Assembly (NCBI GenBank): GCA_009924735.1
Contig: RFQZ01000001.1
Span: 124,001-188,000, forward strand
Origin: Flavobacteriia bacterium
GTDB taxonomy: Bacteria > Bacteroidota > Bacteroidia > Flavobacteriales_D > Crocinitomicaceae
Length of the DNA: 64,000 nucleotides
Direction: 5' to 3'
Part shown: one piece after another, positions 3,973-50,235 of the stretch
How the letters are laid out: each line of letters begins with the position of its first letter
Position numbering within the stretch: the first letter of the stretch is position 1
Position numbers and translations under genes: made by a program
Notes under the pieces: generated by a model
Told to the model about the DNA's origin: nothing
The model's database searches: none
What the model saw: the letters and a program-made list of their open reading frames with translations, nothing else

Positions 3973-3980
3973 TATCTTTG
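3973..3980 (+). promoter_or_regulatory. -7 element of udk, close to the start codon
   Basis: TATCTTTG matches the Bacteroidota -7 consensus exactly and ends 4 nt before the ATG at 3985. Transcription would start at or next to the start codon, implying a leaderless or near-leaderless mRNA. No TTG at the usual -33 spacing was found. Confidence 0.55.
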
Positions 3981-3984
3981 TTTG

Positions 3985-4617
3985 ATGAAACCATTGGACA
4001 AGCCATTTGTCATCGGCATTTGTGGAGGCAGCGGCTCGGGTAAAACCACATTGTTGAGAAGAATAGCGGAGGATATCAATCATTTGAATCCCTCTATTTT
4101 CACCATGGATAACTATTATCATCCGATTGAAAAACAATCAAAAGATGCGATGGACATCGTTAATTTTGATTTGCCCACGGCATTAAATGAAGAAAAACTA
4201 ACCACTGACCTCACTGCGTTAATCCAAGGACGTCCCATCGAGGTTAAAGAGTATTTTTTTAATTCCCCACCTGATAAAAACGTATTGTTAACGATTCAAC
4301 CCAGCCGGGTAATCTTGGTGGAGGGATTGTTTTTGTTTCATTATGAGGAAGTTAGGAACCAGATTGATTTTTCCATTTTTGTTGACGTTGACCATCAGGT
4401 GCAATTGGACAGACGGATTTACCGTGACCAAGAGACGAGAGGGTATAAACGCAGCGACATCATATACCAATGGGAAAACCATGTCTTGCCATGCTATGAA
4501 AAATTCATTTCTCCCTACCAAGATATGGCAACGTATACTTTTAAAAACGACCATCGTTCAGAGGATGACTTTCAAATTGTAAAGAACCTTATTCGTCAAA
4601 AAATCCCATTTGTTTAA
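3985..4617 (+). CDS. udk: Uridine kinase
   Basis: About 210 residues, the normal length. It phosphorylates uridine and cytidine to UMP and CMP in pyrimidine salvage. The Walker A loop GGSGSGKTT is at residues 14-22, followed by the substrate region FTMDNYYHP and the Walker B-like VILVEGLFLFH. The lid segment carries RRIYRDQETRGY. The start is ATG at 3985 (MKPLDKPFVIGI); an in-frame ATG at 3913 would add 24 residues unlike the family and would lie upstream of the likely promoter. It is divergent from the redoxin gene and stands alone before ispG. Confidence 0.93.
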   Translation: MKPLDKPFVIGICGGSGSGKTTLLRRIAEDINHLNPSIFTMDNYYHPIEKQSKDAMDIVNFDLPTALNEEKLTTDLTALIQGRPIEVKEYFFNSPPDKNVLLTIQPSRVILVEGLFLFHYEEVRNQIDFSIFVDVDHQVQLDRRIYRDQETRGYKRSDIIYQWENHVLPCYEKFISPYQDMATYTFKNDHRSEDDFQIVKNLIRQKIPFV

Positions 4618-4646
4618 TTCGAATCATCCGAAAAACATGTTAAGAA

Positions 4647-4654
4647 TACATTTG
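4647..4654 (+). promoter_or_regulatory. -7 element of ispG
   Basis: TACATTTG, an exact TAnnTTTG match, lies 15 nt before the ATG at 4670, in the 52-bp gap after udk. Confidence 0.5.
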
Positions 4655-4669
4655 TTATAAAATTTAATC

Positions 4670-6580
4670 ATGGATTATTGCAATCAGTTATTTGTTAAAT
4701 CGCGGCTAAAAACCGAAAACGTACACATTGGCAACACCAACATTGGTGGCGACCACCCCATTCTTGTTCAATCTATGACAACGGCAGACACCATGAATAC
4801 GGAAGCGTCTGTTGCCGAGGCAATTCGCATGATCGACGCGGGTTGTGAATTGGTGCGCCTAACGGCCCCAAGTAAAAACGAGGCCGAGAACCTTTTTCAC
4901 ATAAAACAAGCTTTGGAAAAAGAGGGGTATTTTCAACCTTTGGTGGCGGACATACACTTTACACCCAATGCCGCCGAAATTGCCGCCAAGTATGTTGAGA
5001 AAATCAGGGTCAACCCAGGTAATTATGCGGATAAAAAAAAGTTTGACACCATTCATTATACGGATGAAACGTATTTAAGTGAATTAAAGCGAATTGAAGA
5101 AAAGTTCACGCCTTTGGTATTGATATGCAAAGAACACAACAGGGCCATGAGAATTGGCACCAATCACGGATCTTTGTCAGACAGAATTTTAAGTAGGTAT
5201 GGAGACACCGCGGAGGGAATGGTGGCTTCGGCGATGGAGTTTATTCAAATATGTGAAAAAAACCATTTTTTCAACTTGGTGATTTCAATGAAAGCCAGCA
5301 ACACGTTAATCATGGTTTATGCTTACAGATTGTTGGTTTCGGAATTAAAAAAAACAGGGAAGGTATATCCTTTACATTTAGGGGTAACAGAAGCCGGGGA
5401 CGGTGAAGACGGAAGGATTAAATCCGCTGTTGGAATTGGTGCCTTACTGACCGATGGAATTGGCGATACCATCCGGGTTTCTTTAACAGAAGCGCCTGAA
5501 ATGGAAATCCCTGTTGCCCAAAAACTGATTGCCATTGCCAATCAAACCAATGTGTATGCCTTTGACGCAACGAAACTTGAACTTAACCACAATCCTGTAG
5601 CCTATACCCGAAGGGAAACCCATGCAATTCAAAGAATAGGAGGAGGGCAAGTCCCCGTTGTGATAGCAGATTTGTCAAATAAAAAGGACATTATACCTGC
5701 CAACTTATTCGCTTTTGGTTATGTATACTCCACAAGTTTAGACAAATGGAACATATTGGAAACCGCCGCTGATTTCTTATATGTCGGAAACCAGACGCTT
5801 TCTTTTGCCTTACCAGGAACCTTACAAGTATTGGTGGACGGAAGTCTTTGGTTGGAACAGCATCAAAATGACCAGGGATTTTATCCCATTGTCCCGATAA
5901 ATGAACGCGCATCTTATCCTTTGGAACAGGTGGTTTTTTGCTTGGTAAAGGCAGAGGAATTCACAGAACAAATGCAACTAGGTAAAGCGGATGTACTCGT
6001 AATTCAAACTGATTTTGACAACAAGGTTCAGCTTTTTAGGTCGGTATTTGCAAAATTAGGACGGACATCACAAAATACACCTGTGGTTTTTCTTTTTGAC
6101 AGCGAGGCAGAAGACAGCGAAGCGTTTCAGTTACAAATTTCAATGGATGCCGGAGCGATGTTTGTGGACGGCTATGGGGATGGGATTTGGGTAACTGCCA
6201 AACACCAGCCGAACACCCTTGTAAACAGCACCATGTTTGGGGTTTTACAAGCAACGCGGCAACGCATTTCAAAAACAGAATACATTTCATGTCCCTCTTG
6301 CGGAAGAACCTTGTTTGATTTGCAAGAAACCACCGCAAAAATCCGGAACAAAACCAGCCACCTTAAAGGCCTAAAAATAGGCATTATGGGTTGCATCGTA
6401 AACGGCCCAGGAGAAATGGCAGATGCAGATTATGGCTATGTTGGAACGGGACCAGGTAAGATTAATTTATACAAGGAAAAAACCGTGGTCCGTAAAAACG
6501 TGGACGCCGAGGACGCCGTTGCCGCTTTAATCGATGTGATTAAAGAAAATGGAGATTGGATAGAACCAAAAGAGGATTAG
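4670..6580 (+). CDS. ispG: 4-hydroxy-3-methylbut-2-enyl diphosphate synthase, long two-domain form
   Basis: 636 residues. It catalyses the penultimate step of the MEP isoprenoid pathway, reducing methylerythritol cyclodiphosphate to HMBPP with a [4Fe-4S] cluster. The N-terminal TIM barrel begins with GDHPILVQSMTTADT. A large insert between barrel and cluster domain makes it much longer than the ~370-residue E. coli enzyme, as known for Bacteroidota, Chlamydiae and plants. Cluster ligands are Cys541 and Cys544 (CPSC) and Cys575 (IMGC), with Glu582 in NGPGE. ispD at 16 kb belongs to the same pathway, which here would also feed the carotenoid genes. Confidence 0.96.
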   Translation: MDYCNQLFVKSRLKTENVHIGNTNIGGDHPILVQSMTTADTMNTEASVAEAIRMIDAGCELVRLTAPSKNEAENLFHIKQALEKEGYFQPLVADIHFTPNAAEIAAKYVEKIRVNPGNYADKKKFDTIHYTDETYLSELKRIEEKFTPLVLICKEHNRAMRIGTNHGSLSDRILSRYGDTAEGMVASAMEFIQICEKNHFFNLVISMKASNTLIMVYAYRLLVSELKKTGKVYPLHLGVTEAGDGEDGRIKSAVGIGALLTDGIGDTIRVSLTEAPEMEIPVAQKLIAIANQTNVYAFDATKLELNHNPVAYTRRETHAIQRIGGGQVPVVIADLSNKKDIIPANLFAFGYVYSTSLDKWNILETAADFLYVGNQTLSFALPGTLQVLVDGSLWLEQHQNDQGFYPIVPINERASYPLEQVVFCLVKAEEFTEQMQLGKADVLVIQTDFDNKVQLFRSVFAKLGRTSQNTPVVFLFDSEAEDSEAFQLQISMDAGAMFVDGYGDGIWVTAKHQPNTLVNSTMFGVLQATRQRISKTEYISCPSCGRTLFDLQETTAKIRNKTSHLKGLKIGIMGCIVNGPGEMADADYGYVGTGPGKINLYKEKTVVRKNVDAEDAVAALIDVIKENGDWIEPKED

Positions 6581-6644
6581 GCTTTTAACAATCTTTCGTT
6601 GATTAATCCTCATGTACGATCAAACCTAAGCCAAAGCGAATCAC

Positions 6645-6652
6645 TACCTTCG
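6645..6652 (+). promoter_or_regulatory. -7 element of the ftsX operon
   Basis: TACCTTCG, one mismatch from TAnnTTTG, ends 4 nt before the ATG at 6657. Same tight spacing as udk and ispD. Confidence 0.45.
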
Positions 6653-6656
6653 TAAC

Positions 6657-7541
6657 ATGTCTGATTCAATAGAAAAATATACAAAAAGGGGGATTAGAAA
6701 CAGTTATGTGTCTACAATCGTTGGCATTTCATTGGTATTGTTCCTTATCGGATTGGTGTTAAGCGGATCCATTGCGTTAAATGCCATTCAAAAACAAGCA
6801 AAGGAAAGCATACAGGGAGACGTGTTTTTTAAGCCAGACATGAATGACACAGACATAAAGCAAATTGAGAAAAAAATCTCCCAATGGCCAATGTTCAATA
6901 AAGTGTGGTTTGTTTCAGCAGAAAGGGCAGTAGAAACGTTTACAGGGGATGGTTCTCAAGACATTCAGTCTATGTTTGAAGAAGAAAACCCCCTGCCGCC
7001 TTCGTTGTGTTTTTCTCCCAAAGCTGCTTTTGCCACCAAGAATGGGATGAATAAAATCAAAGTAAAATTATTAGCAACGTTCAAAGATGAAATCGACGAA
7101 GTTAGTTATGACCCAGCGTCGGTTGAAAACGTCAATTTAGGTTTCAGACAATTTGCTTTTGTGTTCCTTTCGATTGCCTTATTACTCATTATCATCGCGG
7201 TTGCTATGATAAACAATACGATACGAATGTCTCTGTATGCACGTCGTTTTACCATAAAAACCATGCATTTGGTTGGCGCAACTACGCGTTTTGTGCGCAA
7301 ACCTTTTTTGCGTCAAGCCATTGTAAACGGCATCGTGTCCGCTTGCATTGCCATGATTTTATTGATCACGGTGTTTTATGCCCTTAACAATACCCTCGAA
7401 ACCATTGAACTGACTTTTACCCTTACAAATTTATTGATCCTCATTTCTTCGTTGGTTGTCATGGGTGTTTTTATTACCTTCGTCTCCACTTGGATCGCTT
7501 TGAACAAGTATTTGAGAATGAAACTGGACAAATTATACTAA
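6657..7541 (+). CDS. ftsX: FtsX-like cell division permease
   Basis: 294 residues with the FtsX layout: a short cytoplasmic N-terminus, TM1 at about residues 19-42, an extracytoplasmic domain to about residue 165, then three more membrane helices near 168-190, 222-245 and 255-283. FtsX works with the ATPase FtsE to activate peptidoglycan hydrolases at the septum; ftsE is not in the window. The segment between TM2 and TM3 (TIKTMHLVGATTRFVRKPF) is characteristic of the family. It heads a tightly packed operon with DUF3098 (3-nt gap), uppP and truB, a gene order common in Bacteroidota. Confidence 0.9.
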   Translation: MSDSIEKYTKRGIRNSYVSTIVGISLVLFLIGLVLSGSIALNAIQKQAKESIQGDVFFKPDMNDTDIKQIEKKISQWPMFNKVWFVSAERAVETFTGDGSQDIQSMFEEENPLPPSLCFSPKAAFATKNGMNKIKVKLLATFKDEIDEVSYDPASVENVNLGFRQFAFVFLSIALLLIIIAVAMINNTIRMSLYARRFTIKTMHLVGATTRFVRKPFLRQAIVNGIVSACIAMILLITVFYALNNTLETIELTFTLTNLLILISSLVVMGVFITFVSTWIALNKYLRMKLDKLY

Positions 7542-7544
7542 GCT

Positions 7545-7850
7545 ATGAAACCCATTAATCACTTCGGATTTAACCCAAAAAATTATAGAATTCTTTTTAT
7601 TGGAATCGGATTAAATGTCTTAGGATTCGCTTTAATGATTGGAGGGGGTTCTGATGACCCTAACGTTTTTAACGGAAACGAACTCTTTAGCCCAATACGA
7701 ATTACCCTAGCGCCCCTATTTATCGTCGCGGGATATGTTTTCACCCTTGTCGCTGTTATGAAAAAGGACAAAACAGCGGTGACGCAGATAGAAAAAATCG
7801 TTGAGGAAGAAGCGCCCGTAAAGGAAGCAAAGAAAAAAAATCAAAAATAA
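7545..7850 (+). CDS. DUF3098 small membrane protein
   Basis: 101 residues with two predicted membrane helices (about 17-35 and 52-70) and a charged lysine- and glutamate-rich tail. The N-terminal FGFNPKNYRILFIGIGLN and the RITLAPLF segment match DUF3098, a Bacteroidota family whose genes usually lie between ftsX and uppP. The function is unknown. Its place suggests a role near cell division or lipid-carrier metabolism, but that is inference from neighbours only. Confidence 0.85.
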   Translation: MKPINHFGFNPKNYRILFIGIGLNVLGFALMIGGGSDDPNVFNGNELFSPIRITLAPLFIVAGYVFTLVAVMKKDKTAVTQIEKIVEEEAPVKEAKKKNQK

Positions 7851-7853
7851 GGA

Positions 7854-8666: not shown

Positions 8667-9340
8667 ATTTTCTTGAAGGAGAAGTCCTATTGATTGACAA
8701 AGCATATGGTTGGACCTCCTTCGATGTTGTTAACAAGATACGTTGGAACCTCAAAAAAAAATTGGATGTAAAAAACATTAAAGTGGGTCATGCGGGCACG
8801 CTTGATCCATTAGCGACCGGATTGTTGATCATCTGCACAGGAAAAAAAACCAAAACCATCGAGTCCTTGATGGTAGGAAAAAAAACCTACACAGGGACCT
8901 TCTTAGTGGGTAAAACCACACCTTCCTATGACTTAGAGACAGAGTTTAACCACGAATTCCCCACAGCGCATATTACCCAAGAGGCCATCCTGCAAGTAGC
9001 CAATTCCATTGTCGGTGTTCAAATGCAGGTGCCTCCACTTTTTTCTGCAAAACAAATAGACGGAAAGAGGGCTTATGAATTTGCAAGGGAAGGAAAGACA
9101 ATGGAACTTAAGGCCAATGAAATCGAAATCGAAACCTTTCTGGTAACCGCCAACCGTTTTCCCGAAATTGATTTTGAAATCACCTGTTCCAAAGGCACCT
9201 ACATACGTTCCATCGCAAGAGATTTTGGCGAGAAACTGGGTTCTGGGGCAACGTTGATAGAATTGAGAAGGACAAAATCAGGGACATTCGATTTGGCTAA
9301 CGCCTTAACCATTGATGCGTTTCTTGCTGAAATTTTTTAA
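8663..9340 (+). CDS. truB: tRNA pseudouridine-55 synthase
   Basis: 225 residues. TruB converts U55 of the tRNA T-loop to pseudouridine. The catalytic region GHAGTLDPLATGLL contains the essential Asp, and SKGTYIRSIARDFG is the conserved C-terminal RNA-contact motif. The protein lacks a C-terminal PUA extension, as in other Bacteroidota. The start is ATG at 8663, overlapping the uppP stop by 4 nt; an upstream in-frame start at 8606 would sit well inside uppP. Confidence 0.95.
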   Translation: MNFLEGEVLLIDKAYGWTSFDVVNKIRWNLKKKLDVKNIKVGHAGTLDPLATGLLIICTGKKTKTIESLMVGKKTYTGTFLVGKTTPSYDLETEFNHEFPTAHITQEAILQVANSIVGVQMQVPPLFSAKQIDGKRAYEFAREGKTMELKANEIEIETFLVTANRFPEIDFEITCSKGTYIRSIARDFGEKLGSGATLIELRRTKSGTFDLANALTIDAFLAEIF

Positions 9341-9344
9341 TTTT

Positions 9345-9371: not shown

Positions 9372-9387
9372 TTTACAAATTACAACC

Positions 9388-16053: not shown

Positions 16054-16061
16054 TATTTTTG
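16054..16061 (+). promoter_or_regulatory. -7 element of ispD, close to the start codon
   Basis: TATTTTTG, an exact consensus match, ends 3 nt before the ATG at 16065. The predicted transcript would begin at the start codon. No TTG at -33 was found. Confidence 0.55.
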
Positions 16062-16064: not shown

Positions 16065-16733
16065 ATGTTGAAATGGAGTGTTATAATCCCTGCCGGAGGA
16101 ATGGGAAGAAGAATGGGAAGCGCGGTGCCGAAACAATTTTTGGAATTGGACGGACGCCCCTTGATTTTTCACACCATAGGGGTGATGTTGAAATACTTCG
16201 ATCAACCACAGGTTTTGGTTCCCGTACCAAAAGATTGGATTGAACAAGCGAGGACACTATGGCTAAAAGATGCGCTAGATGGAGAGGTGCTGTTTATTGA
16301 AGGAGGAGAAGAAAGGTATGATTCCATAAACAACGCTTTACCGATGGTTCGTGGAAAATACGTTGCCATTCATGATGCGGTGCGACCCTTTGTTTCGAAA
16401 GAAACCATCGAAAGGCTCAAGAAAGGCATGGAAAAAAACGATGCGGTTGTTCCGGTTCTGAACATGAAAGAATCCCTCCGGATCCGTCAAAAAGAAGGCT
16501 CCCTGGCTTTAGACCGCTCTCTTTATGTTTCCGTTCACACTCCCCAATGTTTTGCATACGAACTCATTTGCAAAGCCTACGACCAAGAATTTGACGAGCG
16601 GGTAACCGACGACGCCTGTTTGGCGGAACGGATGGGTGAAAAAGTCACCTTAGTTGAGAGCAACGAAGAAAACATCAAAATAACCACGCCAATGGATTGG
16701 CTTTTGGCGCAACAATTAATAGCGAGAAGATGA
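16065..16733 (+). CDS. ispD: 2-C-methyl-D-erythritol 4-phosphate cytidylyltransferase
   Basis: 222 residues. IspD couples MEP to CTP in the non-mevalonate isoprenoid pathway. The nucleotide-binding signature PAGGMGRRMGSAVPKQF is at residues 9-25; the conserved HDAVRPFV and VTDDA segments follow. The start is ATG at 16065 (MLKWSVIIPAGG); a TTG two codons earlier overlaps the promoter element. It is divergent from cysS, and its TGA overlaps the ATG of ldcA by 4 nt, so the two are translationally coupled. Confidence 0.95.
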   Translation: MLKWSVIIPAGGMGRRMGSAVPKQFLELDGRPLIFHTIGVMLKYFDQPQVLVPVPKDWIEQARTLWLKDALDGEVLFIEGGEERYDSINNALPMVRGKYVAIHDAVRPFVSKETIERLKKGMEKNDAVVPVLNMKESLRIRQKEGSLALDRSLYVSVHTPQCFAYELICKAYDQEFDERVTDDACLAERMGEKVTLVESNEENIKITTPMDWLLAQQLIARR

Positions 16734-24125: not shown

Positions 24126-24133
24126 TACTTTTG
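24126..24133 (+). promoter_or_regulatory. Possible -7 element of purN
   Basis: TACTTTTG, an exact consensus match, ends 4 nt before the GTG at 24138. If it is the promoter, the ATG at 24090 cannot be the start. Confidence 0.45.
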
Positions 24134-24137
24134 GGTC

Positions 24138-24722
24138 GTGAACAAAGCAATTAAAATAGCCATTTTGATTTCCGGCCAGGGTTCAAATGCGCGAAATATC
24201 ATTCAAAGGTTTGAAAATCAATCGGATAACGAAATTGTAAGGGTGTTGAGTACCCGTGAAAATCCTGACATGGCCTTGTTTTGTGCAAAAAGGAACATTG
24301 CTTTTGAATCCTTTGAGTCTTATGATGAAACAAAGTGTTTAAAGGTTTTACAACAAGACCAAGTTGATATGGTAGTGCTTGCTGGATTTTTGAAGAAAAT
24401 CGGCCCTGCGATGTTACAAGCGTTCCCCAATAAAATCATCAATGTCCACCCCGCTTTGTTGCCAAAATTTGGGGGCAAAGGAATGTATGGAACACGTGTT
24501 CACCTAGCGGTTTTTGATCACAAAGAAAGCAAGTCAGGGATAACCATTCATTTGGTGAATGAGAACTATGACGAAGGGGAGCACATCGCTCAGTTTGAAT
24601 GTTATATAGACCCTTCGGATACCGCAAAAGAAATAGAATCGAAAGTCAGAAAATTAGAGACAGAACATTTTCCAGAAACGGTTTTCCAATTTGCACTCCA
24701 ACTAAGTCAGCGCGTTTTGTAA
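24138..24722 (+). CDS. purN: Phosphoribosylglycinamide formyltransferase
   Basis: About 194 residues. Transfers the formyl group from 10-formyl-THF to GAR in purine synthesis. Signatures: ILISGQGSNARNI at the N-terminus, VVLAGFLKKI, the catalytic Asn-His of INVHPALLP, and the later loop NENYDEGEHIAQ containing the conserved Asp. I prefer GTG at 24138 (NKAIKIAILISGQ), which gives the usual length and sits just after a TACTTTTG element; an ATG at 24090 would add 16 residues. Its 3' end overlaps the convergent kynU by 21 bp. Confidence 0.92.
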   Translation: MNKAIKIAILISGQGSNARNIIQRFENQSDNEIVRVLSTRENPDMALFCAKRNIAFESFESYDETKCLKVLQQDQVDMVVLAGFLKKIGPAMLQAFPNKIINVHPALLPKFGGKGMYGTRVHLAVFDHKESKSGITIHLVNENYDEGEHIAQFECYIDPSDTAKEIESKVRKLETEHFPETVFQFALQLSQRVL

Positions 24723-25991: not shown

Positions 25992-25999
25992 TATTTTTG
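25992..25999 (+). promoter_or_regulatory. -7 element of hemL
   Basis: TATTTTTG, exact consensus, 19 nt before the ATG at 26019. Confidence 0.55.
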
Positions 26000-26018: not shown

Positions 26019-27320
26019 ATGGCGCAACTGAACAGAACAGAGTCAAAACGATTGTTTGAATCAGCAAACACTTTGTTTCCCGGGGGAGTCAATTCACCCG
26101 TACGCGCTTTTAAAAGTGTAGGAGGAACGCCTCTTTTTATTGACAAAGGCAAAGGGTCCCACATTTGGGATGTAGATGGGAATAAATTCCTAGATTTTTG
26201 CAACAGCTGGGGGCCTTTGATTCATGGCCATGCGAATGATTATGTTGAAAGTAAGGTAATAGAGTCCTTGAAAAAGGGGGCGAGTTTTGGTGCGCCAACG
26301 GAGATGGAGAATCGCCTGGCTACCCTCATTAAAACACACATTCCGTTTATTGAAAAAATGCGGTTTGTAAGTTCCGGAACCGAGGCGGTAATGTCTGCGC
26401 TGCGATTGGCAAGGGGGTATACGAACAAATCAAAAATATTGAAATTTGAAGGCTGTTACCATGGGCACGTGGATGCTTTGTTGGTAAAAGCAGGAAGTGG
26501 AATGGCCACGCTTGGGACCTCTTCCAGTGCAGGTGTTCCAGATGCTTTCGCCAATGAAACGTTGGTCCTCCCCCTAAATGATGCAGAAAAATTGCAGCGC
26601 ACTTTTGAAAACCATGCCCACGAAATGGCAGCCGTGATTATTGAGCCTGTTCCGGCTAATAATGGTCTGCTTTTACAAGATTTAAGCTTTTTGATGCAAC
26701 TTCGGGCACTCTGCACAGAACACAAGGTACTGCTAATCTTTGATGAAGTTATCTCAGGTTTTCGTGTTGCTTTTGGAGGCGCGAGTGAGGTTTACAAAAT
26801 AACACCAGACATTGTTACCTATGGCAAAATAATCGGCGGAGGATTGCCCGTTGGAGCCTATGCTTCTTCGAATGAAATCATGTCTATGGTCGCCCCCGAA
26901 GGGCCGGTTTATCAAGCAGGCACCTTATCTGGTAACCCCGTGGCCATGGCAGCGGGCATTGCCCAGTTGGAGTTGTGTTTGACTGAAGGGTTTTATCCAA
27001 GGATGGAAGTGAAAACAAGTCAATTTGTACAACGAATCAACGCTTTTGCCAAAATAAAGAACTATCCTTTTGAACTTGCATTCATGGGGTCTATTTTTTG
27101 GTTGTCTTTTAATGGGCGTAAATCGGTTCATCGGTCGGATGAGATCAATTCCGACATGACAAAGTTTAATGAAATGCATGCGTTTTTGTTGGAAAACGGC
27201 GTTTACATTGGTCCAAGCGGATACGAGGTGGGTTTTGTTTCTTCTGCCCACACGGAGGAAGAACTGGCTTATGCCGCCGATTGTTTTTGCAGGGGCTTAG
27301 ACGTGTTGTATGGCAAATGA
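26019..27320 (+). CDS. hemL: Glutamate-1-semialdehyde 2,1-aminomutase
   Basis: 433 residues. Produces 5-aminolevulinate for heme synthesis by the C5 pathway. Signatures: PGGVNSPVRAF near the N-terminus, FVSSGTEAVMSALRLARG, the PLP aspartate in LIFDEVISGFR and the PLP lysine in TYGKIIGGGLPVGAY. It is the first gene of a plus-strand run that continues through an SDR protein into carotenoid genes; the next ATG lies one base after its stop (an alternative overlaps it by 11 bp). Confidence 0.97.
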   Translation: MAQLNRTESKRLFESANTLFPGGVNSPVRAFKSVGGTPLFIDKGKGSHIWDVDGNKFLDFCNSWGPLIHGHANDYVESKVIESLKKGASFGAPTEMENRLATLIKTHIPFIEKMRFVSSGTEAVMSALRLARGYTNKSKILKFEGCYHGHVDALLVKAGSGMATLGTSSSAGVPDAFANETLVLPLNDAEKLQRTFENHAHEMAAVIIEPVPANNGLLLQDLSFLMQLRALCTEHKVLLIFDEVISGFRVAFGGASEVYKITPDIVTYGKIIGGGLPVGAYASSNEIMSMVAPEGPVYQAGTLSGNPVAMAAGIAQLELCLTEGFYPRMEVKTSQFVQRINAFAKIKNYPFELAFMGSIFWLSFNGRKSVHRSDEINSDMTKFNEMHAFLLENGVYIGPSGYEVGFVSSAHTEEELAYAADCFCRGLDVLYGK

Positions 27321-39886: not shown

Positions 39887-41335
39887 TTAAAACGAAGCGT
39901 TCAAAGGAGTTCTCGGAAAAGGGATTACATCTCGAATGTTTGTCATTCCCGTCACAAACATAATCATTCTTTCCAAGCCCAATCCAAATCCTGCATGAGG
40001 CACGGTGCCAATTTTCCGGGTTTGTAAATACCACCACAATTCGGATTCATGAATGCCAAATTCCTTCACTTTTTCAAGTAGTTTATCATAGCGCTCTTCA
40101 CGTTGAGATCCTCCGACAATCTCCCCAATACCGGGAAACAATACGTCCATGGCAGCAACGGTTTTTCCGTCCTCATTCGCACGCATGTAGAATGCTTTGA
40201 TTTGAGAAGGGTAGTCCGTTAATATAACAGGACATTTGAATTCCTTTTCCACCAAGTATCGCTCGTGTTCACTTTGCAAATCGATGCCCCACTCAACTGG
40301 ATATTGAAATTTCTTCTTCTTATAATGATTGGATTGCAATAAAACCTCAATCGCTTCGGTATAACTCAATCGCTTAAACGGATTGTCGACCACAAATTGA
40401 ATTCGTTCCATTAAGCCCAACTCTGTTCTTTCCTGTTGGGGTTTTTGGGATTGCTCTTGCACGTCTCTTTCATGTAGAAAAGCAAGGTCCTCTTTGCAGT
40501 TTTCAAGAACGTAACGACAAATGTGCTTAAGAAAATCTTCGGTTAAATCCATGTTGTCTTTTAAGTCGTTAAACGCGACTTCGGGTTCAATCATCCAAAA
40601 TTCAGCAAGGTGACGAGAGGTATTTGAGTTTTCCGCCCGAAACGTGGGGCCAAAAGTATAGACCTTTCCAAGCGCCAAAGCCGCAAGTTCAGCTTCAAGT
40701 TGACCGGATACCGTCAAGTTAACGCCTTTGCCAAAAAAATCTTTTTGAAAGTCAATTTCCCCACTATCGTCCAGCGGAGGATTCTTCATGTCTAAGGTGG
40801 TTACGCGGAACATTTCTCCGGCCCCTTCTGCGTCTGACCCCGTAATAATGGGTGTGTTTAGGTAGTAAAAACCATTCGCATTGAAATAATGGTGAATTGC
40901 ATAGGATACCGCATGACGGATTCGAAAGACCGCCCCAAAGGTATTCGTACGAAACCTTAAATGAGCTTGCTCCCTCAAAAAATCAAGGCTGTGACGTTTG
41001 GGTTGCATAACGGTTTTTTGTACATCATCCGCAGGTCCATCGCCTAAAACTTCAAAAGATTGAACGTTTAACTCAATCTGTTGGCCAGAACCAATGGAAG
41101 CAACCAATTCTCCGACAATGCTTAAGGAAGCTGCGGTGGTAATTCTTTTTATTTGAACCTCCTCAAACTGAGAAAAATCCAACACGGCCTGTAGGTTGCC
41201 CAAACAAGACCCGTCATTGAGTTGGATAAAACGGTTGCTACGAAAAGCACGCACCCAACCTTGAACCTTAACGGTGTCCCCAATTTTAAAGGTTGATCCG
41301 CCTTCTAAAATCTCTTTTATTCTCAAATTTAACAT
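39887..41335 (-). CDS. asnS: Asparaginyl-tRNA synthetase
   Basis: 482 residues. Class II synthetase of the AspRS/AsnRS group: an N-terminal OB-fold anticodon-binding domain ([20 protein letters not shown]) and a catalytic domain with motif 2 [26 protein letters not shown] and motif 3 [12 protein letters not shown], given here in key residues. Its presence means asparagine is charged directly rather than by amidation. The start [10 protein letters not shown] is as in the family, and the ATG lies just 5 nt after a complete -33/-7 promoter. Confidence 0.96.
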
Positions 41336-41340: not shown

Positions 41341-41369
41341 CAAAAGTAGGCTTTTAGCGCGAAAATCAA
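41341..41369 (-). promoter_or_regulatory. Promoter of asnS-rpoN, 5 nt from the start codon
   Basis: Minus strand TTG (41367-41369), 18 nt, TACTTTTG (41341-41348), then 5 nt to the ATG at 41335. Complete consensus match. The family-conserved N-terminus begins at that ATG, so the transcript has little or no leader. Confidence 0.65.
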
Positions 41370-43925: not shown

Positions 43926-44489
43926 TCATTTTCCATTCCATTGGGTCATCGCCAATTGGAGTCCAATGGTGCAGAACGATTCTATAAATTGCGCTGCCGT
44001 ATCAATCCTTTCAGGCAATTGCTCCTGCTCTAATTCTCCCCATGTACCAAGGACATAATCCACCTGTCGTCCGGCCTTAAATTCATTGCCAATACCGAAG
44101 CGTAAGCGCGTATACGCTGTGGTAGCCAATGTGCTTTGGATGTCTTTTAGGCCATTGTGGCCCCCATCAGAACCGGACGCCTTCATGCGCAGTTTGCCGA
44201 ATGGAAGCGATAAATCATCGGTAACTACCAAAACGTGGTCTAACGAGACCCCCTCTTTCTGCATCCAATAATGAACCGCTTTCCCTGACAGATTCATAAA
44301 GGTTGTGGGCTTAACCAAGATTAGGCTTTTGCCTTTAAATTTAACGGTACTGGTATGCGCTGCGCGGTTTAAAGAGAAGGATCCACCGTGTTTTTCATTG
44401 AGAAAATCCAACACCTTAAATCCGATGTTATGCCTTGTGTTTTCATATTCAGCACCAGGATTACCGAGCCCAACGATTAGAAACTTCAT
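43926..44489 (-). CDS. pth: Peptidyl-tRNA hydrolase
   Basis: 187 residues. Releases tRNA from peptidyl-tRNAs dropped by ribosomes. Signatures: FLIVGLGNPGAEYENTRHNIGF with the catalytic His, the KPTTFMNLSG segment and DDLSLPFGKLRMKASGSDGGHNG. The family start MKFLIVGLGNPG fixes the ATG at 44489. A TAACTTTA element lies 4 nt upstream. It is convergent with the T9SS type B gene and divergent from tRNA-Ser. Confidence 0.96.
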   Translation of the reverse strand: MKFLIVGLGNPGAEYENTRHNIGFKVLDFLNEKHGGSFSLNRAAHTSTVKFKGKSLILVKPTTFMNLSGKAVHYWMQKEGVSLDHVLVVTDDLSLPFGKLRMKASGSDGGHNGLKDIQSTLATTAYTRLRFGIGNEFKAGRQVDYVLGTWGELEQEQLPERIDTAAQFIESFCTIGLQLAMTQWNGK

Positions 44490-44493: not shown

Positions 44494-44501
44494 TAAAGTT
44501 A
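44494..44501 (-). promoter_or_regulatory. Likely -7 element of pth, close to the start codon
   Basis: TAACTTTA on the minus strand, one mismatch, ends 4 nt before the ATG at 44489. Confidence 0.4.
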
Positions 44502-44950: not shown

Positions 44951-44965
44951 GCAAAATTTTTTTTC

Positions 44966-46930
44966 ATGTCTGGATCATATCATAAAATGTCTTTTGCCGG
45001 CGTACTCATTACCATGGGAATAGTCTTTGGGGACATCGGAACCTCTCCTTTGTATGTTTTTCAAGCCATAACCGGTGGAGGCGCGCACATTAGCAAAGAC
45101 TTTATTTATGGTGGTTTGTCTTGTGTTATCTGGACTTTGATATTATTGGCAGGCGTGAAGTACATTTATTTTGCGTTAAACGCAGACAACAAAGGGGAAG
45201 GAGGGATTTTTTCCTTGTTTGCCTTGTTGAAAAAACGCAACATTCGATGGGTCGTCATTCCAGCATTGATTGGTTGTGCAACCTTGTTGGCAGATGGGTT
45301 TATTACGCCCGCTATTTCCATTTCGTCCGCTGTAGAAGGGGTCAACAACATCAATCCCGACGTTCCTGTTATTCCCATTGTTGTGGCCATCATTATTGTT
45401 TTATTTATGGTTCAACAATTTGGCACAGCAACCATCGGTAAAATGTTTGGGCCGATAATGTTTGTTTGGTTTGGGTATTTACTGTACTTGGGCTTGATCA
45501 ACATCACGAAAAACCCGGCTGTTCTGGCGGCGATCAATCCGATGGAAGCGATTCATTTTGTCCTTCATGTCAAAGGGGGCTTTGCTGCGTTGGGAGCTGT
45601 TTTTTTATGTACCACGGGTGCAGAAGCTTTGTATTCAGACTTAGGTCACTGTGGAAAAGGAAACATCCGCATCAGCTGGAGTGCGGTCTCAGGGATTTTA
45701 GTAATCAACTACCTTGGGCAAGCCGCGCTTTGTACAAGTTCAGGTTTCACCTTGGAAAAGGGAGAAACCATTTTTTATTCCATGGTTCCTGACAATCAAA
45801 TGTTATTTGCCGTAATAACAGCCACTGCCGCCACAATCATTGCCTCTCAAGCTTTAATTACCGGAGTGTTTACACTCATGAATGAGGCAATAAAACTGAA
45901 GTTCTGGACCAACTTAAAGGTAAAATTTCCTTCCGACCACCAAGGACAAATTTACATTCCCTTTATCAATTGGGTGCTTATGGTGGGTTGTTTGGTTGTG
46001 ATTGCGATCTTTAAGAAATCAGGGGCAATGGAAAATTCTTATGGGCTTGCCATTACCATAAACATGGTCATGACATCTATCCTATTGCTTTTGTTGCTCT
46101 ACCTTAAATATCCTAAGGCAAGGGTTTTTTACATTATTATTTTTCTCGGGTTTCTATTCATTGAAAGCATTTTCTTAATGTCAAACCTTGGTAAAGTAGT
46201 CCATGGAGGATGGTTTACCTTGGTGCTCTCCATCTCCTTCTTTGTGCTGTTGTTCCTTTACTTTAAAGCAAGACAACTTAGGAAAAACATTACTGAATAC
46301 CTTCCAATGCGTGCCGTTATCCCGATGTTAAAAGCAGTTCGTAAAGACACAGGAATCCCTTTTGAAGCAACCAACTTGGTCTTTCCAACGCGCAGCAATA
46401 CGCACGACAAACTAGACCTTACCGTATTCCATTCCTTGTTTATGAAACGCCCTCGCAAAGCGGGAGTGATTTGGTTTTTGCACCTCGACATCCTTAACGA
46501 ACCTAAGGGAGTACATTATTCTGTGCATGAAATCGTCGACAAAGAATGCTATTATGTTTCCCTAGAACTAGGATTTAAAGAAGAGCACAGAATTGAATAC
46601 ATGATGCGTAAAATACACCGTCACATGGTGGAAAAAGGCGAGTTGGAAAACGAAAGCATTTTTGAATCCATAAAAAACAAAATGGATAAATTGGACTTTA
46701 AGTTCATCGTTTTGAACTCAAGGGTGTCCACCGACAATGCGCTTAATGCCTTTCAAGTGCTATGTGTAAAAGCGTATCGTTTTGTGAAGTCTACCGGTCT
46801 TAAACCAGCGGAAGATTTTGGATTGGATAAAACTAATGTAGAAGTAGATTACATTCCGATTTCCGTTACAGCCCAAGTAAACCAAGAAATGATAGAAGAG
46901 TTTGAGGATTACTCACATCCCAAGGACTAA
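44966..46930 (+). CDS. kup: KUP-family potassium uptake protein
   Basis: 654 residues. A K+/H+ symporter of the KUP/HAK/KT family with about 12 membrane helices in the first ~440 residues and a cytoplasmic C-terminal domain. Family signatures: GIVFGDIGTSPLYVFQ near residues 18-33, the NADNKGEGGIFSLFAL stretch in the first loop, and TTGAEALYSDLGHCG. The C-terminus is longer than in many proteobacterial members. The stop codon overlaps that of the convergent ansA by a few bases. Regulation is not evident, although the upstream region is rich in hairpins. Confidence 0.95.
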   Translation: MSGSYHKMSFAGVLITMGIVFGDIGTSPLYVFQAITGGGAHISKDFIYGGLSCVIWTLILLAGVKYIYFALNADNKGEGGIFSLFALLKKRNIRWVVIPALIGCATLLADGFITPAISISSAVEGVNNINPDVPVIPIVVAIIIVLFMVQQFGTATIGKMFGPIMFVWFGYLLYLGLINITKNPAVLAAINPMEAIHFVLHVKGGFAALGAVFLCTTGAEALYSDLGHCGKGNIRISWSAVSGILVINYLGQAALCTSSGFTLEKGETIFYSMVPDNQMLFAVITATAATIIASQALITGVFTLMNEAIKLKFWTNLKVKFPSDHQGQIYIPFINWVLMVGCLVVIAIFKKSGAMENSYGLAITINMVMTSILLLLLLYLKYPKARVFYIIIFLGFLFIESIFLMSNLGKVVHGGWFTLVLSISFFVLLFLYFKARQLRKNITEYLPMRAVIPMLKAVRKDTGIPFEATNLVFPTRSNTHDKLDLTVFHSLFMKRPRKAGVIWFLHLDILNEPKGVHYSVHEIVDKECYYVSLELGFKEEHRIEYMMRKIHRHMVEKGELENESIFESIKNKMDKLDFKFIVLNSRVSTDNALNAFQVLCVKAYRFVKSTGLKPAEDFGLDKTNVEVDYIPISVTAQVNQEMIEEFEDYSHPKD

Positions 46931-47955
46931 TTCATTTCACCAACAACGGATTCCTTTAGTAGCTTTTTAATTTCGTCGATGTCGCTGAAATTACCATAAA
47001 GCCACATTAGTTTTGTCAATGCTGACTCTACATTCATGTCTCCTCCGCTGATCACACCTGCTTTCTCAAAGAACCGGCTCGAAGCGTATTTTCCATGTTG
47101 TACACTCCCGGAAACACATTGAGTGATGTTAAGTACAACGCCGCCGCTTCCAATGTAAGCGAGGATCATGGACTGAAAACTTATATCACTAAAAGCGTTT
47201 CCCGCACCGAACGTTTCAATTACAATGGCAACATGATGGTCTATGTTAAATAAACATTCATAGGCTTTTGGATTCATCCCAGGAAACAGTTTCATCAAAC
47301 CAATCTTGTCGTTTAGTTTGGGATAGAAGCGCAATGAAGGTTCATCTTTAGGGTTGTCTTTTGGTAAAGGGGAAATATTGATTTCAACGCCGACCGCTCC
47401 CAATAGGGCGTGGTTTGGAGAGTCAAAAGCATCAAACTGGTTTGCCGATACTTTCGAACAACGGTTTCCTTTAAAGAGTTTAGATTGAAAAAACACAGCG
47501 ACGTCTTTCAATACGGGGTCTCCAGATGCGGTTTTCTTCCCCGCAATTTCAATGGAAGTAAGTAGGTTTTCCTTGCCATCGGTGCGTAAAATCCCAATGG
47601 GCAATTGCGACCCGGTCAAAATGATGGGTTTTTGAATTCCCTGAATTAAAAAACTGAGCGCCGCGGCTGTATACGCCATGGTGTCTGTTCCATGCAATAC
47701 CACAAAACCGTCAAATTTCTCATAGTTTTCCGCGATGATTCGTGACAATTCTAGCCAAACGGCTGGTGACATATCGGAAGAATCAATGGGGGAAGAAATG
47801 CTAAGGGAAGAAACAGACACACCAAGTTGTGCAATTTCAGGGATTTGGTTGTGAATGTAGGCAAGGTCCAAGCCTTTTAACTCCCCAGTTTCAAGATCTT
47901 TGACCATTCCAATGGTACCTCCAGTATAGATTAAAAGGACTTTTGAGGTCATCAT
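46927..47955 (-). CDS. ansA: Type I L-asparaginase
   Basis: 342 residues. Hydrolyses asparagine to aspartate and ammonia. Active-site threonines are in IYTGGTIGM (N-terminal) and VLHGTDTMAYTAAALSF, with the serine region SSPIDSSDMSP between. No signal peptide, so it is the cytoplasmic type I form. The start ATG overlaps the tatD stop by 4 nt, linking it in a galE-tatD-ansA operon. Confidence 0.93.
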   Translation of the reverse strand: MMTSKVLLIYTGGTIGMVKDLETGELKGLDLAYIHNQIPEIAQLGVSVSSLSISSPIDSSDMSPAVWLELSRIIAENYEKFDGFVVLHGTDTMAYTAAALSFLIQGIQKPIILTGSQLPIGILRTDGKENLLTSIEIAGKKTASGDPVLKDVAVFFQSKLFKGNRCSKVSANQFDAFDSPNHALLGAVGVEINISPLPKDNPKDEPSLRFYPKLNDKIGLMKLFPGMNPKAYECLFNIDHHVAIVIETFGAGNAFSDISFQSMILAYIGSGGVVLNITQCVSGSVQHGKYASSRFFEKAGVISGGDMNVESALTKLMWLYGNFSDIDEIKKLLKESVVGEMN

Positions 47956-48740
47956 AGGCCGTGGTTTTTAAGTTGGAAAAGCTTGTGTGCGTTGTGGGTT
48001 GTTTGCAAACCGATTTCATCTGGCCCTACATGGTAACAGTCTACCAAGTGATCCACAACATAAGAGAGAAAAGAAGGCTCGTTTCGCCTGCCGCGATGAG
48101 GGACTGGGGGCAAATAGGGCGCATCTGTTTCCAAAAGAATTTTTTCGAGGGGCAAGGTTTTTATGACGGATTTTAAGTCGCTGTTTTTATAACTGATGAC
48201 CCCTCCAATGCCGAACAAAAACCCAGGTAAATTCTCTAGGATGTGTTCTGCCTGTGCGACCGTACCTGTAAAACAGTGAAATGCGCCACGCAAAGCGGTT
48301 TTTTCGTATTTTGCCAGCTCTACAAAAACTTCGTCAAAGGCATTTCTAATGTGAAAAACGATAGGAAGGTCAAACGCCAAAGCCCAAGAGATTTGCTTGT
48401 GTAAAGCATCCACTTGTTGTGTCTGAAAAGTTGTGTCCCAGTATAAATCCAATCCAATTTCTCCAATGGCACAAAAAGCAGAGGGGCTTGATTTTAACAA
48501 CGAATATAAAGCATCCAATTCTTCCAAATGGTTAATTTTTACGCTACAAGGGTGAAGGCCTATCATGGGAACCATCGGAAGGCTTGACGTTGGCATTTGG
48601 AACAGAAGCTCGGAAGAGGCAAGGTCAATGTTTGGCAACAGCAAAGCCCCTACGCCTGCATCTTTCGCTCTTTGTATCACGTCGGAAAAGTCTTCGCTAA
48701 ATACCGTGTCGTAAATATGGCAGTGTGTGTCAATGATCAT
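47952..48740 (-). CDS. TatD-family metal-dependent hydrolase
   Basis: 262 residues. Metal ligands of the family are visible: DTHCHIYD at the N-terminus, the Glu of AIGEIGLDLYW, HIRNA, HCFTGT and the Asp of LLETDAPYLPP. TatD proteins are 3'-5' exonucleases or deoxyribonucleases tied to DNA repair; the exact substrate of this member is unclear. Start and stop both overlap neighbours by 4 nt (galE upstream, ansA downstream). Confidence 0.92.
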   Translation of the reverse strand: MIIDTHCHIYDTVFSEDFSDVIQRAKDAGVGALLLPNIDLASSELLFQMPTSSLPMVPMIGLHPCSVKINHLEELDALYSLLKSSPSAFCAIGEIGLDLYWDTTFQTQQVDALHKQISWALAFDLPIVFHIRNAFDEVFVELAKYEKTALRGAFHCFTGTVAQAEHILENLPGFLFGIGGVISYKNSDLKSVIKTLPLEKILLETDAPYLPPVPHRGRRNEPSFLSYVVDHLVDCYHVGPDEIGLQTTHNAHKLFQLKNHGL

Positions 48741-49753
48741 TTATTCGTTTTTCTGGATTTTTCCCAACGCCAAGCATCTTCAATGGCACTTTCTACACTT
48801 CGTTTAGCTGCCCACTGCAATTCGGATTTAGCCAAGTCAACATTGGCGTAAATCTCAACAACATCGCCCATCCTTCTGTTGCCAATTTCAAACGGCAATG
48901 GAGCGTGCGTGATTTTTTGGAAGAAATCTACGACTTCTAATACAGTGGTTCCTTTTCCTGTTCCAATGTTGAAATGGGACAGCGAAGGATTGTTTTTTCC
49001 CACATAATTTAAAGCAACCACGTGGGCATCTGCAACATCACACACATGAATGTAATCGCGCACACAGGTTCCATCTGAGGTGGGATAATCATTTCCAAAA
49101 ACCGTGAGTTTTTCCTGCAGCCCCATAGCCGTTTGGGTAATGTAGGGCAATAAATTGTTCGGCGTTCCATTTGGGAGCTCTCCAATTTGTGCAGAGGGAT
49201 GCGCACCGATTGGGTTGAAGTACCTTAAGCAAATGATTTGAAGGTCTGGCTTGGTTTTGCTGTAGTCTTCTAATATCTGTTCCCCCATCCATTTTGTAAA
49301 ACCATAGGGCGATACAGGGAGTTTTTTTGCAGTCGTTTCTCGCACCTCTTTTACATCCGGCTCTCCATAAACGGTACAAGAGGAAGAAAAGACCAGTTTC
49401 TCAATGCCAAAGAACGCGGAAGCCTCCATTACATTCATAAGACCAATCAGGTTGTTTTGATAGTATTCCAAAGGATGTGCACAGGAGTCACCCACAGATT
49501 TGTAGGCCGCGAAATGAATAATTGCGTAAATGTTGTGTTTTTCAATTGTTTCGAAAAGCAAGTTTTTATCGCAAATATCAATTGGATAAAACGTAAAACT
49601 GTCTTTTATAAGTTGGTTAATACCGGTTAAAATCTCTTGAGAACTGTTTCTTAAGTCATCCACAATAATCGGATGAAATCCTTGATTGGACAATTCAACC
49701 ACGGTGTGTGAGCCGATGTAACCAGCGCCTCCCGTAACGAGCACATTTTTCAT
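48737..49753 (-). CDS. galE: UDP-glucose 4-epimerase
   Basis: 338 residues. Interconverts UDP-glucose and UDP-galactose, supplying galactose for surface glycans. NAD motif VTGGAGYIGSHTVVEL at the N-terminus, Ser region FSSSCTVYG, catalytic Tyr and Lys in SPYGFTKWMGEQ. The family N-terminus MKNVLVTGGAGYIG fixes the ATG at 49753, and a perfect -7 element ends only 4 nt before it. First gene of the operon with tatD and ansA. Confidence 0.95.
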   Translation of the reverse strand: MKNVLVTGGAGYIGSHTVVELSNQGFHPIIVDDLRNSSQEILTGINQLIKDSFTFYPIDICDKNLLFETIEKHNIYAIIHFAAYKSVGDSCAHPLEYYQNNLIGLMNVMEASAFFGIEKLVFSSSCTVYGEPDVKEVRETTAKKLPVSPYGFTKWMGEQILEDYSKTKPDLQIICLRYFNPIGAHPSAQIGELPNGTPNNLLPYITQTAMGLQEKLTVFGNDYPTSDGTCVRDYIHVCDVADAHVVALNYVGKNNPSLSHFNIGTGKGTTVLEVVDFFQKITHAPLPFEIGNRRMGDVVEIYANVDLAKSELQWAAKRSVESAIEDAWRWEKSRKTNK

Positions 49754-49757
49754 AGGT

Positions 49758-49765
49758 CAAATTTA
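49758..49765 (-). promoter_or_regulatory. -7 element of galE, close to the start codon
   Basis: TAAATTTG on the minus strand, exact consensus, ends 4 nt before the ATG at 49753. No TTG at -33 seen. Confidence 0.55.
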
Positions 49766-49785
49766 GGAAAATTAATTTTGGTGTT

Positions 49786-49820
49786 TTGGAATGTATAAAA
49801 GCGCCTTTGTTTTATCTTTA
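49786..49820 (+). promoter_or_regulatory. Promoter of the DUF2141 gene, close to the start codon
   Basis: TTG (49786-49788), 24 nt, TATCTTTA (49813-49820, one mismatch), then 4 nt to the ATG at 49825. Confidence 0.45.
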
Positions 49821-49824
49821 CCCT

Positions 49825-50235
49825 ATGCAATTGTTTATTTTTCTCTTATGTTTTCTTAGTTATGGAGCCGATGATTCTCATGATCTGGATGTTAGTGTGA
49901 GCGGTTTTCCCTCGGACAAAGGCCAGGTTTATGTGGGATTGTTTAACAAGTCAGAAGATTTTGCCGTAAGAGGAAAACAATTTAAAGGAAAAGTAGCCAC
50001 CATTGAGGGCAAAAAAGCGATTGTTCATTTCGAAAACCTACCCACAGGAAATTATGCGGTGGCAAGTTTTCACGACAAGAACAAAAATGGATATATGGAT
50101 AAAAACGCCTTTGGGCTGCCCTTAGAATCCTATGGTTTTTCAAACCAGGCAAGAGGAACACTCGGTCCTCCTTCGTTTTCAGATGCAAAATTTCGCATTG
50201 AAGATGACCGGAAAATTGAAATCCGCCTGAAATAA
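49825..50235 (+). CDS. Exported DUF2141 protein
   Basis: 136 residues from ATG at 49825. The N-terminus MQLFIFLLCFLSYGADDSH is a signal peptide. The body matches DUF2141: GQVYVGLFNKSEDF, FENLPTGNYAVASFHDKNKNG and the closing LESYGFSNQARG, a transthyretin-like beta-sandwich. The function is unknown. A TTG at 49786 would add 13 residues before the signal peptide and lies upstream of the promoter. It is divergent from galE across 71 bp. Confidence 0.85.
   Translation: MQLFIFLLCFLSYGADDSHDLDVSVSGFPSDKGQVYVGLFNKSEDFAVRGKQFKGKVATIEGKKAIVHFENLPTGNYAVASFHDKNKNGYMDKNAFGLPLESYGFSNQARGTLGPPSFSDAKFRIEDDRKIEIRLK

What the first reader, a model, noticed from the sequence alone, without database searches (positions are those of the whole stretch)
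3973..49825. Promoter -7 elements 3-5 nt from the start codon in many genes: leaderless mRNAs
TAnnTTTG-like elements end 3-5 nt before the start codon at udk (3973-3980), ftsX (6645-6652), ispD (16054-16061), purN (24126-24133), asnS (41341-41348), pth (44494-44501), galE (49758-49765) and the DUF2141 gene (49813-49820); the redoxin gene may be another. Five match exactly, and asnS also has its TTG at 18 nt. For udk, ispD, asnS, pth and galE the family N-terminus fixes the start. With the element centred near -7, transcription would begin at or next to the start codon. Other genes (panC, hemL, lysS, ileS) have normal leaders of about 15-30 nt, so two classes of genes may coexist. That Bacteroidota use TAnnTTTG is established; the leaderless reading is inference.
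Basis: partly seen in the sequence, partly recalled or inferred. Interest (0 to 1): 0.7.

Follow-up and report, generated by a model that had tools for sequence, protein, structure and literature searches.

The report
Leaderless genes in a flavobacterial lineage
In this flavobacterium and its relatives, many ordinary housekeeping genes carry their promoter so close to the start codon that the messenger RNA should begin at or next to the start codon itself, a mode of gene expression reported to be uncommon in this bacterial phylum.

Summary
All eight elements lie where stated, 3-5 nt before the start codon; five match TAnnTTTG exactly. This exceeds chance. In 845 kb of the own genome (603 called genes) the distance from TAHHTTTG to the start codon is bimodal: 31 genes at 3-7 nt, 4 at 8-12, then a second hump from 13 nt. 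Dinucleotide shuffles give 2.75 at 3-6 nt, against 27 seen. The five exact cases are conserved: 101 of 146 readable genus orthologues of udk, galE, asnS, ispD and purN keep the element at 3-7 nt; only 2 of these have another exact element within 100 nt. DUF2141 is not conserved; ftsX and pth were not tested. In Flavobacterium johnsoniae many starts lie 4-5 nt after this element (PMC6847099), so these mRNAs should start at, or within a few nt of, the start codon. Leaderless genes in Bacteroidota are published as a small minority. New here: the scale (31 of 109 exact near-start elements), the gap between two classes, conservation with turnover, and an unnamed family where the class may dominate. 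No 5' end has been mapped.

The parts
3973..3980 (+). -7 element TATCTTTG, 4 nt before udk ATG (3985)
   Evidence: at gap 3-7 in 13 of 30 genus orthologues, at 8-12 in 4 and at 13-45 in 13
3985..4617 (+). udk (uridine kinase family)
   Evidence: NCBIfam below its cut-off, Pfam above; start supported by orthologues
6645..6652 (+). candidate element TACCTTCG (one mismatch), 4 nt before ftsX ATG (6657)
6657..7541 (+). ftsX
16054..16061 (+). -7 element TATTTTTG, 3 nt before ispD ATG (16065)
   Evidence: at gap 3-7 in 27 of 28 readable orthologues
16065..16733 (+). ispD
24126..24133 (+). -7 element TACTTTTG, 4 nt before purN GTG (24138)
   Evidence: at gap 3-7 in 17 of 30 orthologues (9 GTG, 8 ATG starts), at 8-12 in 12, none within 45 nt in 1
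24138..24722 (+). purN, GTG start
   Evidence: NCBIfam below its cut-off, Pfam above; family match begins at residue 6
41341..41348 (-). -7 element TACTTTTG, 5 nt before asnS ATG (41335); TTG 18 nt further upstream
   Evidence: at gap 3-7 in 23 of 28 readable genus orthologues
39887..41335 (-). asnS
44494..44501 (-). candidate element TAACTTTA (one mismatch), 4 nt before pth ATG (44489)
43926..44489 (-). pth
49758..49765 (-). -7 element TAAATTTG, 4 nt before galE ATG (49753)
   Evidence: exact at gap 3-7 in 21 of 30 orthologues; the 8 without an exact element show TAnnTTTA at gap 4 (read by eye)
48737..49753 (-). galE
49813..49820 (+). candidate element TATCTTTA (one mismatch), 4 nt before DUF2141 gene ATG (49825)
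   Evidence: only the own copy and its 97% identical sibling have such an element near the start, of 25 readable orthologues: doubtful
49825..50235 (+). DUF2141 gene
   Evidence: PF09912
58101..58108 (-). leadered contrast: TATTTTTG 17 nt before the gene called at 58083
60609..60616 (+). leadered contrast: TATCTTTG 16 nt before the gene called at 60633
25992..25999 (+). leadered contrast: TATTTTTG 19 nt before the gene called at 26019

Best explanation
These genes form a leaderless (0 to about 3 nt leader) class of the Bacteroidota housekeeping promoter. The sigma-A(Bfr)-type -7 element TAHHTTTG sits so that RNA polymerase starts on the first base of the start codon or next to it, and the ribosome must initiate on a 5'-terminal AUG/GUG without a leader. 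A second, leadered class (gap 13 nt or more, so a leader of roughly 8 nt or more) coexists. Shown here: element position, bimodal spacing, conservation, exchange between the two classes among orthologues, promoter signature. Inferred: the transcription start (from the 4-5 nt spacing reported for F. johnsoniae) and the mode of ribosome loading.
For: (1) Bimodal gaps in the own genome: 3-7 nt 31, 8-12 nt 4, 13-17 nt 30; pooled with G013 of the same genus 47 / 7 / 40, binomial p 2e-8 and 1e-6 for the trough against each side. Shuffles 2.75 against 27 at 3-6 nt; reversed motif 0. (2) Mode at 4 nt, one of the two commonest -7-to-start spacings of F. johnsoniae (PMC6847099, passages). (3) Promoter signature: G at 4 of 140 N positions in the near class (gaps 3-6, four genomes), 214 of 1042 in TANNTTTG inside coding sequence. 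(4) Promoter context in the own genome: 55% of near-class genes have a divergent upstream neighbour, as do 54% of leadered ones, against 23% of the rest. (5) Conservation: 101 of 146 readable orthologues of five genes keep the element at 3-7 nt; after removing similar upstream regions 6/19, 12/17, 7/12, 20/21, 13/18. (6) Family matches begin at residues 3-7 of galE, ispD, purN, udk and asnS, so the start cannot lie much further downstream.
Against: No 5' end is mapped. Gap 3 (ispD and many of its orthologues) would place a 4-5 nt spaced start inside the AUG, so some start-site shift is needed. 12 of 30 purN and 4 of 30 udk orthologues lie at gap 8-12, so very short leaders exist and the classes are not cleanly separate for every gene. 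16% of own near-class genes follow a same-strand gene by less than 30 nt, against 6% of leadered ones (37% of the rest), and in G126 25% against 5%, so some may be operon-internal or chance. TTG at -33 shows no preferred spacing, though the box is weak in F. johnsoniae too. DUF2141 is not conserved. The gene caller is home-made, uses codon usage only, and placed the udk and purN starts upstream of the family-supported ones.
Confidence: 0.86

Rival explanations
1. The transcripts are not strictly leaderless but have ultra-short leaders of 1-6 nt, because the start site floats; the class is a continuum of near-leaderless genes. (This overlaps with the best explanation, so the two confidences do not add.)
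For: Gaps 3, 6 and 7 occur next to 4-5 (5, 2 and 4 genes against 13 and 7); purN orthologues at gap 8 and udk orthologues at 9-11.
Against: Sharp mode at 4 nt in four genomes pooled (38 of 74 at gaps 3-7) and the trough at 8-12 nt.
Confidence: 0.35
2. A second promoter further upstream makes ordinary leadered mRNA, and the near element is a minor or silent start.
For: Alternative sigma factors and inexact elements cannot be excluded by a consensus scan; one-mismatch elements occur further upstream of some genes (pth at gap 11, galE at gap 13).
Against: Only 2 of 101 near-class orthologues carry another exact TAnnTTTG 13-100 nt upstream; the near element is kept while the flanks diverge.
Confidence: 0.1
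3. The elements are chance matches in AT-rich DNA or arise from wrong start codons.
For: Inexact cases in the window are not clearly above shuffles on their own, and the 3 exact cases at called starts equal the highest of 200 shuffles; DUF2141 is not conserved.
Against: Shuffle and reversed-motif controls on 603 genes, internal-ATG control (0-5 per gap over 4178 ATGs), conservation, family matches starting at residues 3-7.
Confidence: 0.03
4. UAnnUUUG acts in the RNA as a translation signal, not as a promoter.
For: Position relative to the start codon is nearly fixed, as for a ribosome signal.
Against: Same consensus and G-avoidance as the leadered elements and a promoter-like gene context; leadered udk and asnS orthologues have the element at 13-35 nt and no other exact copy within 45 nt.
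Confidence: 0.03

Closest known systems
Leaderless mRNAs of Flavobacterium psychrophilum (5.5% of mRNAs among 890 CDS; PMC9723704, passages) and short leaders of Bacteroides thetaiotaomicron (about 3.7% of 5' UTRs under 10 nt; PMC7366714, passages)
   Same: Same phylum, same TAnnTTTG-type element, transcription starting at or near the start codon
   Different: There a small remainder; here 31 of 109 exact elements found within 45 nt of called starts, in a separate peak, in conserved housekeeping genes. The measures differ (mapped mRNAs there, consensus elements here)
Flavobacterium johnsoniae promoters (PMC6847099, passages)
   Same: TAHHTTTG, G avoided at the N positions, weak -33 box; 4-5 nt to the start is the commonest spacing
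   Different: 87% of its predicted leaders exceed 10 nt, mean 33 nt
Leaderless genes of Actinobacteria and Deinococcus-Thermus found by a Pribnow-like signal near the start (PMC3160421, passages)
   Same: Promoter -10/-7 box directly before the start codon used as the predictor of leaderless genes
   Different: That method sought Pribnow-like boxes, found leaderless genes in 1 of 37 Bacteroidetes/Chlorobi genomes (2.4% of genes), and says it may underestimate Bacteroidetes

Membership tests
Bacterial leaderless mRNA genes | Promoter core element placed so that transcription starts at or next to the start codon | tested here: met
   Element position; the spacing to the start is taken from PMC6847099, not measured here
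Bacterial leaderless mRNA genes | Start codon is the true start (no downstream start behind a leader) | tested here: met
   for udk, galE, asnS, ispD, purN; for pth the family match begins at residue 4 but orthologues were not compared; not shown for ftsX
Bacterial leaderless mRNA genes | No other promoter making a leadered transcript | tested here: inconclusive
   2 of 101 orthologues have another exact element 13-100 nt upstream; other sigma factors and inexact elements not excluded
Bacterial leaderless mRNA genes | 5' end of the mRNA mapped at the start codon | not testable with these tools
   Needs dRNA-seq or 5' RACE
Bacterial leaderless mRNA genes | Translated from a 5'-terminal AUG/GUG | not testable with these tools
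   Needs ribosome profiling or toeprinting
Bacteroidota sigma-A(Bfr) promoters | -7 element TAnnTTTG with G avoided at the N positions | tested here: met
   G at 4 of 140 N positions in the near class, coding background 214 of 1042
Bacteroidota sigma-A(Bfr) promoters | -33 TTTG/TTG box | tested here: not met
   No preferred TTG spacing in 30 near-class or 73 leadered genes; asnS has one. The box is also little evident in F. johnsoniae, so this does not separate the two classes

The most novel reading that the evidence does not exclude
In some Flavobacteriales lineages (the unnamed family f9, e.g. G102 and its genus) leaderless initiation is the main mode for housekeeping promoters, so part of a phylum known for leadered, SD-free translation has moved largely to leaderless translation, gene by gene and repeatedly.
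Probability: 0.4. Interest if true: 0.75.

Novelty: new member of a known kind. Interest (0 to 1): 0.55.

Why it matters
Bacteroidota mRNAs lack Shine-Dalgarno sequences, and published maps find few leaderless mRNAs in the phylum. A lineage where about a quarter of recognisable near-start promoters sit on the start codon, with an avoided range of leader lengths and with orthologues that switch between both states, makes it testable how these ribosomes load without a leader and what selects for or against one. It also matters for gene-start annotation: a promoter box at 4 nt is a usable start signal in these genomes, and it marks the purN GTG start that my codon-based caller missed.

Tried and rejected
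Chance and composition: rejected by dinucleotide shuffles, reversed motif and internal ATGs. Wrong start codons: rejected for five genes by family matches and orthologues. Compaction of intergenic space as the cause: not supported in the own genome, where near-class genes have a median distance of 97 nt to the upstream gene and leadered ones 105 nt; in G013, G126 and G102 the near-class medians are shorter (51, 46, 77 nt) than the leadered ones (126, 90, 138 nt), so a contribution there is open. A -33 box as extra support: no preferred spacing. Initiator-like base before the start: A at -1 is lower in the near class than in the other genes (19% against 36% in the own genome), but numbers are small, so it is not used. 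Mixed named Bacteroidota (80 asnS loci): 4 near of 72 exact elements (shuffled 0.85 at 3-6 nt, reversed motif 1), 3 of the 4 on contigs of the closest relatives. First-pass gene calling with the first ATG and with a first codon model gave the same shape. One search failed on a file name. Start picking: five of 80 named asnS loci had no ATG near the expected start; asnS L266 had no start and L281 got a TTG; four purN loci got an upstream ATG and ispD L314 and L315 had no start; one search repeated five genes with ATG or GTG near the family N-terminus and left out 4 loci without a start (2 asnS, 2 ispD). In one search one of 11 genomes of genus g18 (G113) was left out by oversight; its counts are 161 / 101 / 155.
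Full report
What was checked. The eight elements were read at the given coordinates on the right strands. Gaps to the start codon are 4 (udk), 4 (ftsX), 3 (ispD), 4 (purN, GTG start), 5 (asnS), 4 (pth), 4 (galE) and 4 nt (DUF2141). Five are exact TAnnTTTG; ftsX, pth and DUF2141 have one mismatch. Gene names agree with NCBIfam and Pfam: NCBIfam matches are below the curated cut-off for udk, ftsX and purN and absent for DUF2141, while each of the eight has a Pfam match over its gathering score.

Organism. The genome is an unnamed 2.504-Mb draft of 74 contigs. The nearest named relatives by AsnRS are MAGs titled Crocinitomicaceae, Lishizhenia and uncultured Flavobacteriales, so I place it in or near the Crocinitomicaceae by that evidence only.

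Is it more than chance? In 845,400 bases of the own genome (40 stretches plus the window; 34% of it) a codon-usage gene caller found 603 genes. Exact TAHHTTTG at gaps 3, 4, 5, 6, 7 precedes 5, 13, 7, 2, 4 starts; at gaps 8-12 it precedes 0, 1, 2, 0, 1; from 13 nt a second hump follows (54 at 13-27, 18 at 28-45). Dinucleotide shuffles give 2.75 at gaps 3-6 against 27 observed; the reversed motif gives 0. Two earlier callings gave the same shape. In-frame ATGs more than 80 codons inside genes show no peak. Pooled with G013 of the same genus: 47 at 3-7, 7 at 8-12, 40 at 13-17; binomial p 2e-8 and 1e-6. In the window itself, 52 called genes give 3 exact elements at 3-5 nt (5 with the family-supported udk and purN starts) against a shuffled mean of 0.3 and maximum of 3. 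One-mismatch elements in the own genome peak at gap 4 (20, against 3 and 5 beside it), so an inexact element at gap 4 is more likely real than not, but each single case is uncertain.

Are they promoters? At the two N positions the near class (gaps 3-6) has G in 4 of 140, leadered elements (13-30) in 14 of 234, and TANNTTTG inside coding sequence in 214 of 1042 (four genomes). G-avoidance at these positions is the refinement TAHHTTTG reported for F. johnsoniae (PMC6847099, passages). In the own genome 55% of near-class genes have a divergent upstream neighbour, 54% of leadered and 23% of other genes; same-strand neighbours closer than 30 nt are 16%, 6% and 37%. So near-class genes stand mostly at the head of transcription units, somewhat less cleanly than leadered ones.

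Where does transcription start? In F. johnsoniae 241 of 434 candidate promoters have 4 or 5 nt between element and predicted start (passages). Applied here, gap 4 or 5 puts the start on the first base of the start codon. This step is inference. Gaps 3, 6 and 7 imply a shift of one to three nt.

Conservation. From the best 30 loci each in 61 genus genomes, 146 had a readable start; 101 have exact TAnnTTTG at 3-7 nt: udk 13 of 30, galE 21 of 30, asnS 23 of 28, ispD 27 of 28, purN 17 of 30. After removing upstream regions over 75% identical the counts are 6/19, 12/17, 7/12, 20/21 and 13/18. Only 2 of the 101 have another exact element 13-100 nt upstream. The 8 galE cases without an exact element carry TAnnTTTA at gap 4 (read by eye). 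Orthologues also switch: 13 of 30 udk loci have the element at 13-45 nt (13-18), and three asnS loci at 20, 28 and 35 nt, where the ATG is preceded by AT-rich sequence instead. In 80 named Bacteroidota asnS loci, 50 nt upstream scanned, the four closest (L042-L045) have the element at gap 4-5; among the others every element found lies at 17-42 nt except a second one at 12 in L116, many have none, and five had no usable start. purN keeps GTG at the near gap in 9 of its 17 near-class orthologues. DUF2141 keeps such an element only in the own copy and its 97% identical sibling, of 25 readable; I do not count it.

How widespread? In 249 genomes of the order, TAHHTTTG N4-5 ATG, N9-10 ATG and N16-17 ATG were counted genome-wide on both strands (these counts include ATGs that are not starts). 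G000 gives 149 / 85 / 117. For the 40 genus genomes the median ratio of 4-5 to 9-10 is 1.98 (range 1.04-2.88) and 38 of 40 have more at 4-5 than at 16-17. In a chosen subset of the others: 10 of 11 genomes of genus g18 of the same family 2.61, 18 genomes of family f9 4.05 (range 2.01-7.62), 8 of other genera of the own family 1.19, all 6 of f13 1.06, 8 of f3 1.03 (hand-copied from 90 of 249 rows). With called genes, exact elements at 3-7 nt among those at 0-45 nt number 31 of 109 (own), 16 of 44 (G013), 11 of 23 (G102, f9), 16 of 43 (G126, f9), 7 of 48 (G047, f13) and 4 of 72 (named mixed Bacteroidota). The trait is therefore uneven across the order. Allowing for shuffled expectation the own share is about 25-30%. 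This is a share of exact elements near called starts, not of all mRNAs, and the f9 samples are small.

Against published knowledge. B. thetaiotaomicron: about 3.7% of 5' UTRs under 10 nt (PMC7366714, passages). F. psychrophilum: 5.5% leaderless among mRNAs of 890 CDS (PMC9723704, passages). F. johnsoniae: 87% of leaders over 10 nt. Zheng et al. found leaderless genes in 1 of 37 Bacteroidetes/Chlorobi genomes with a Pribnow-like search and noted it may underestimate Bacteroidetes (PMC3160421, passages). Nakagawa et al. [quoted passage not shown] StartLink describes the FCB group as having AT-rich non-canonical RBSs (PMC9581028, passages). Searches: leaderless with Crocinitomi* gave no paper; with Flavobacteri* and transcription start sites four papers; with Bacteroidota and transcription start site one; with Bacteroidetes or TAnnTTTG (any two of the three terms) 75, of which 20 were listed; with GeneMarkS-2 58, of which 10 were listed; one search was too broad (15 of 1,433 listed). 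In the listings and passages that I saw there is no report of this spacing class; papers not listed were not looked at, and most subscription papers are not held.

What the genes are. Of the 27 near-class genes outside the window printed (one more, spanning two stretches, was left out), 12 were scanned with NCBIfam. Over the cut-off: uvrC, nadC, apt, lpxD, radA and a 3-hydroxybutyryl-CoA dehydrogenase. Below it: queE-, response-regulator-, CoA-transferase-, SDR- and kinase-like matches. One had no match. By these matches the class is made of ordinary housekeeping genes; none of the 12 looks like a mobile-element gene.

Conclusion. Leaderless genes as such are known, also in this phylum; the scale, the avoided leader length, the conserved and switching state, and the f9 lineages are what a specialist would want to see followed up.

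Noticed in passing
G102 (L122-L141), G126 (L142-L161) and other genomes of unnamed family f9: Whole-genome counts of TAHHTTTG-N4-5-ATG exceed N16-17 several-fold in some genomes (G102 89 against 14), and 11 of 23 exact near-start elements in the G102 sample are at 3-7 nt; leaderless may be the main class there.
   Followed up: partly
window 24126-24140; L322-L351: purN uses a GTG start at the near gap in 9 of 17 near-class orthologues: candidate conserved leaderless GUG mRNAs.
   Followed up: partly
L234-L238, L244, L248, L249 (galE): TAnnTTTA replaces TAnnTTTG at gap 4 in 8 of 30 galE orthologues, suggesting that A at the last position is tolerated or gives a weaker promoter.
   Followed up: no
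L328, L329, L331, L333, L336, L343, L345, L346 (purN): A sub-group of purN orthologues holds the element at gap 8 (leader of about 3-4 nt), in the otherwise avoided range, with a further in-frame ATG 21 nt upstream of the chosen start.
   Followed up: no
genus genomes G012, G017, G019, G156, G242, G244, G269, G270, G271, G273, G275: ispD has no match in 11 of 61 genus genomes, six of them at least 94% complete; a sub-group may lack this step of the MEP pathway.
   Followed up: no
Searches (G275:C17; G256:C44; G020:C6): galE, ispD and purN reading frames with internal stops in single draft genomes: assembly errors or decaying copies.
   Followed up: no
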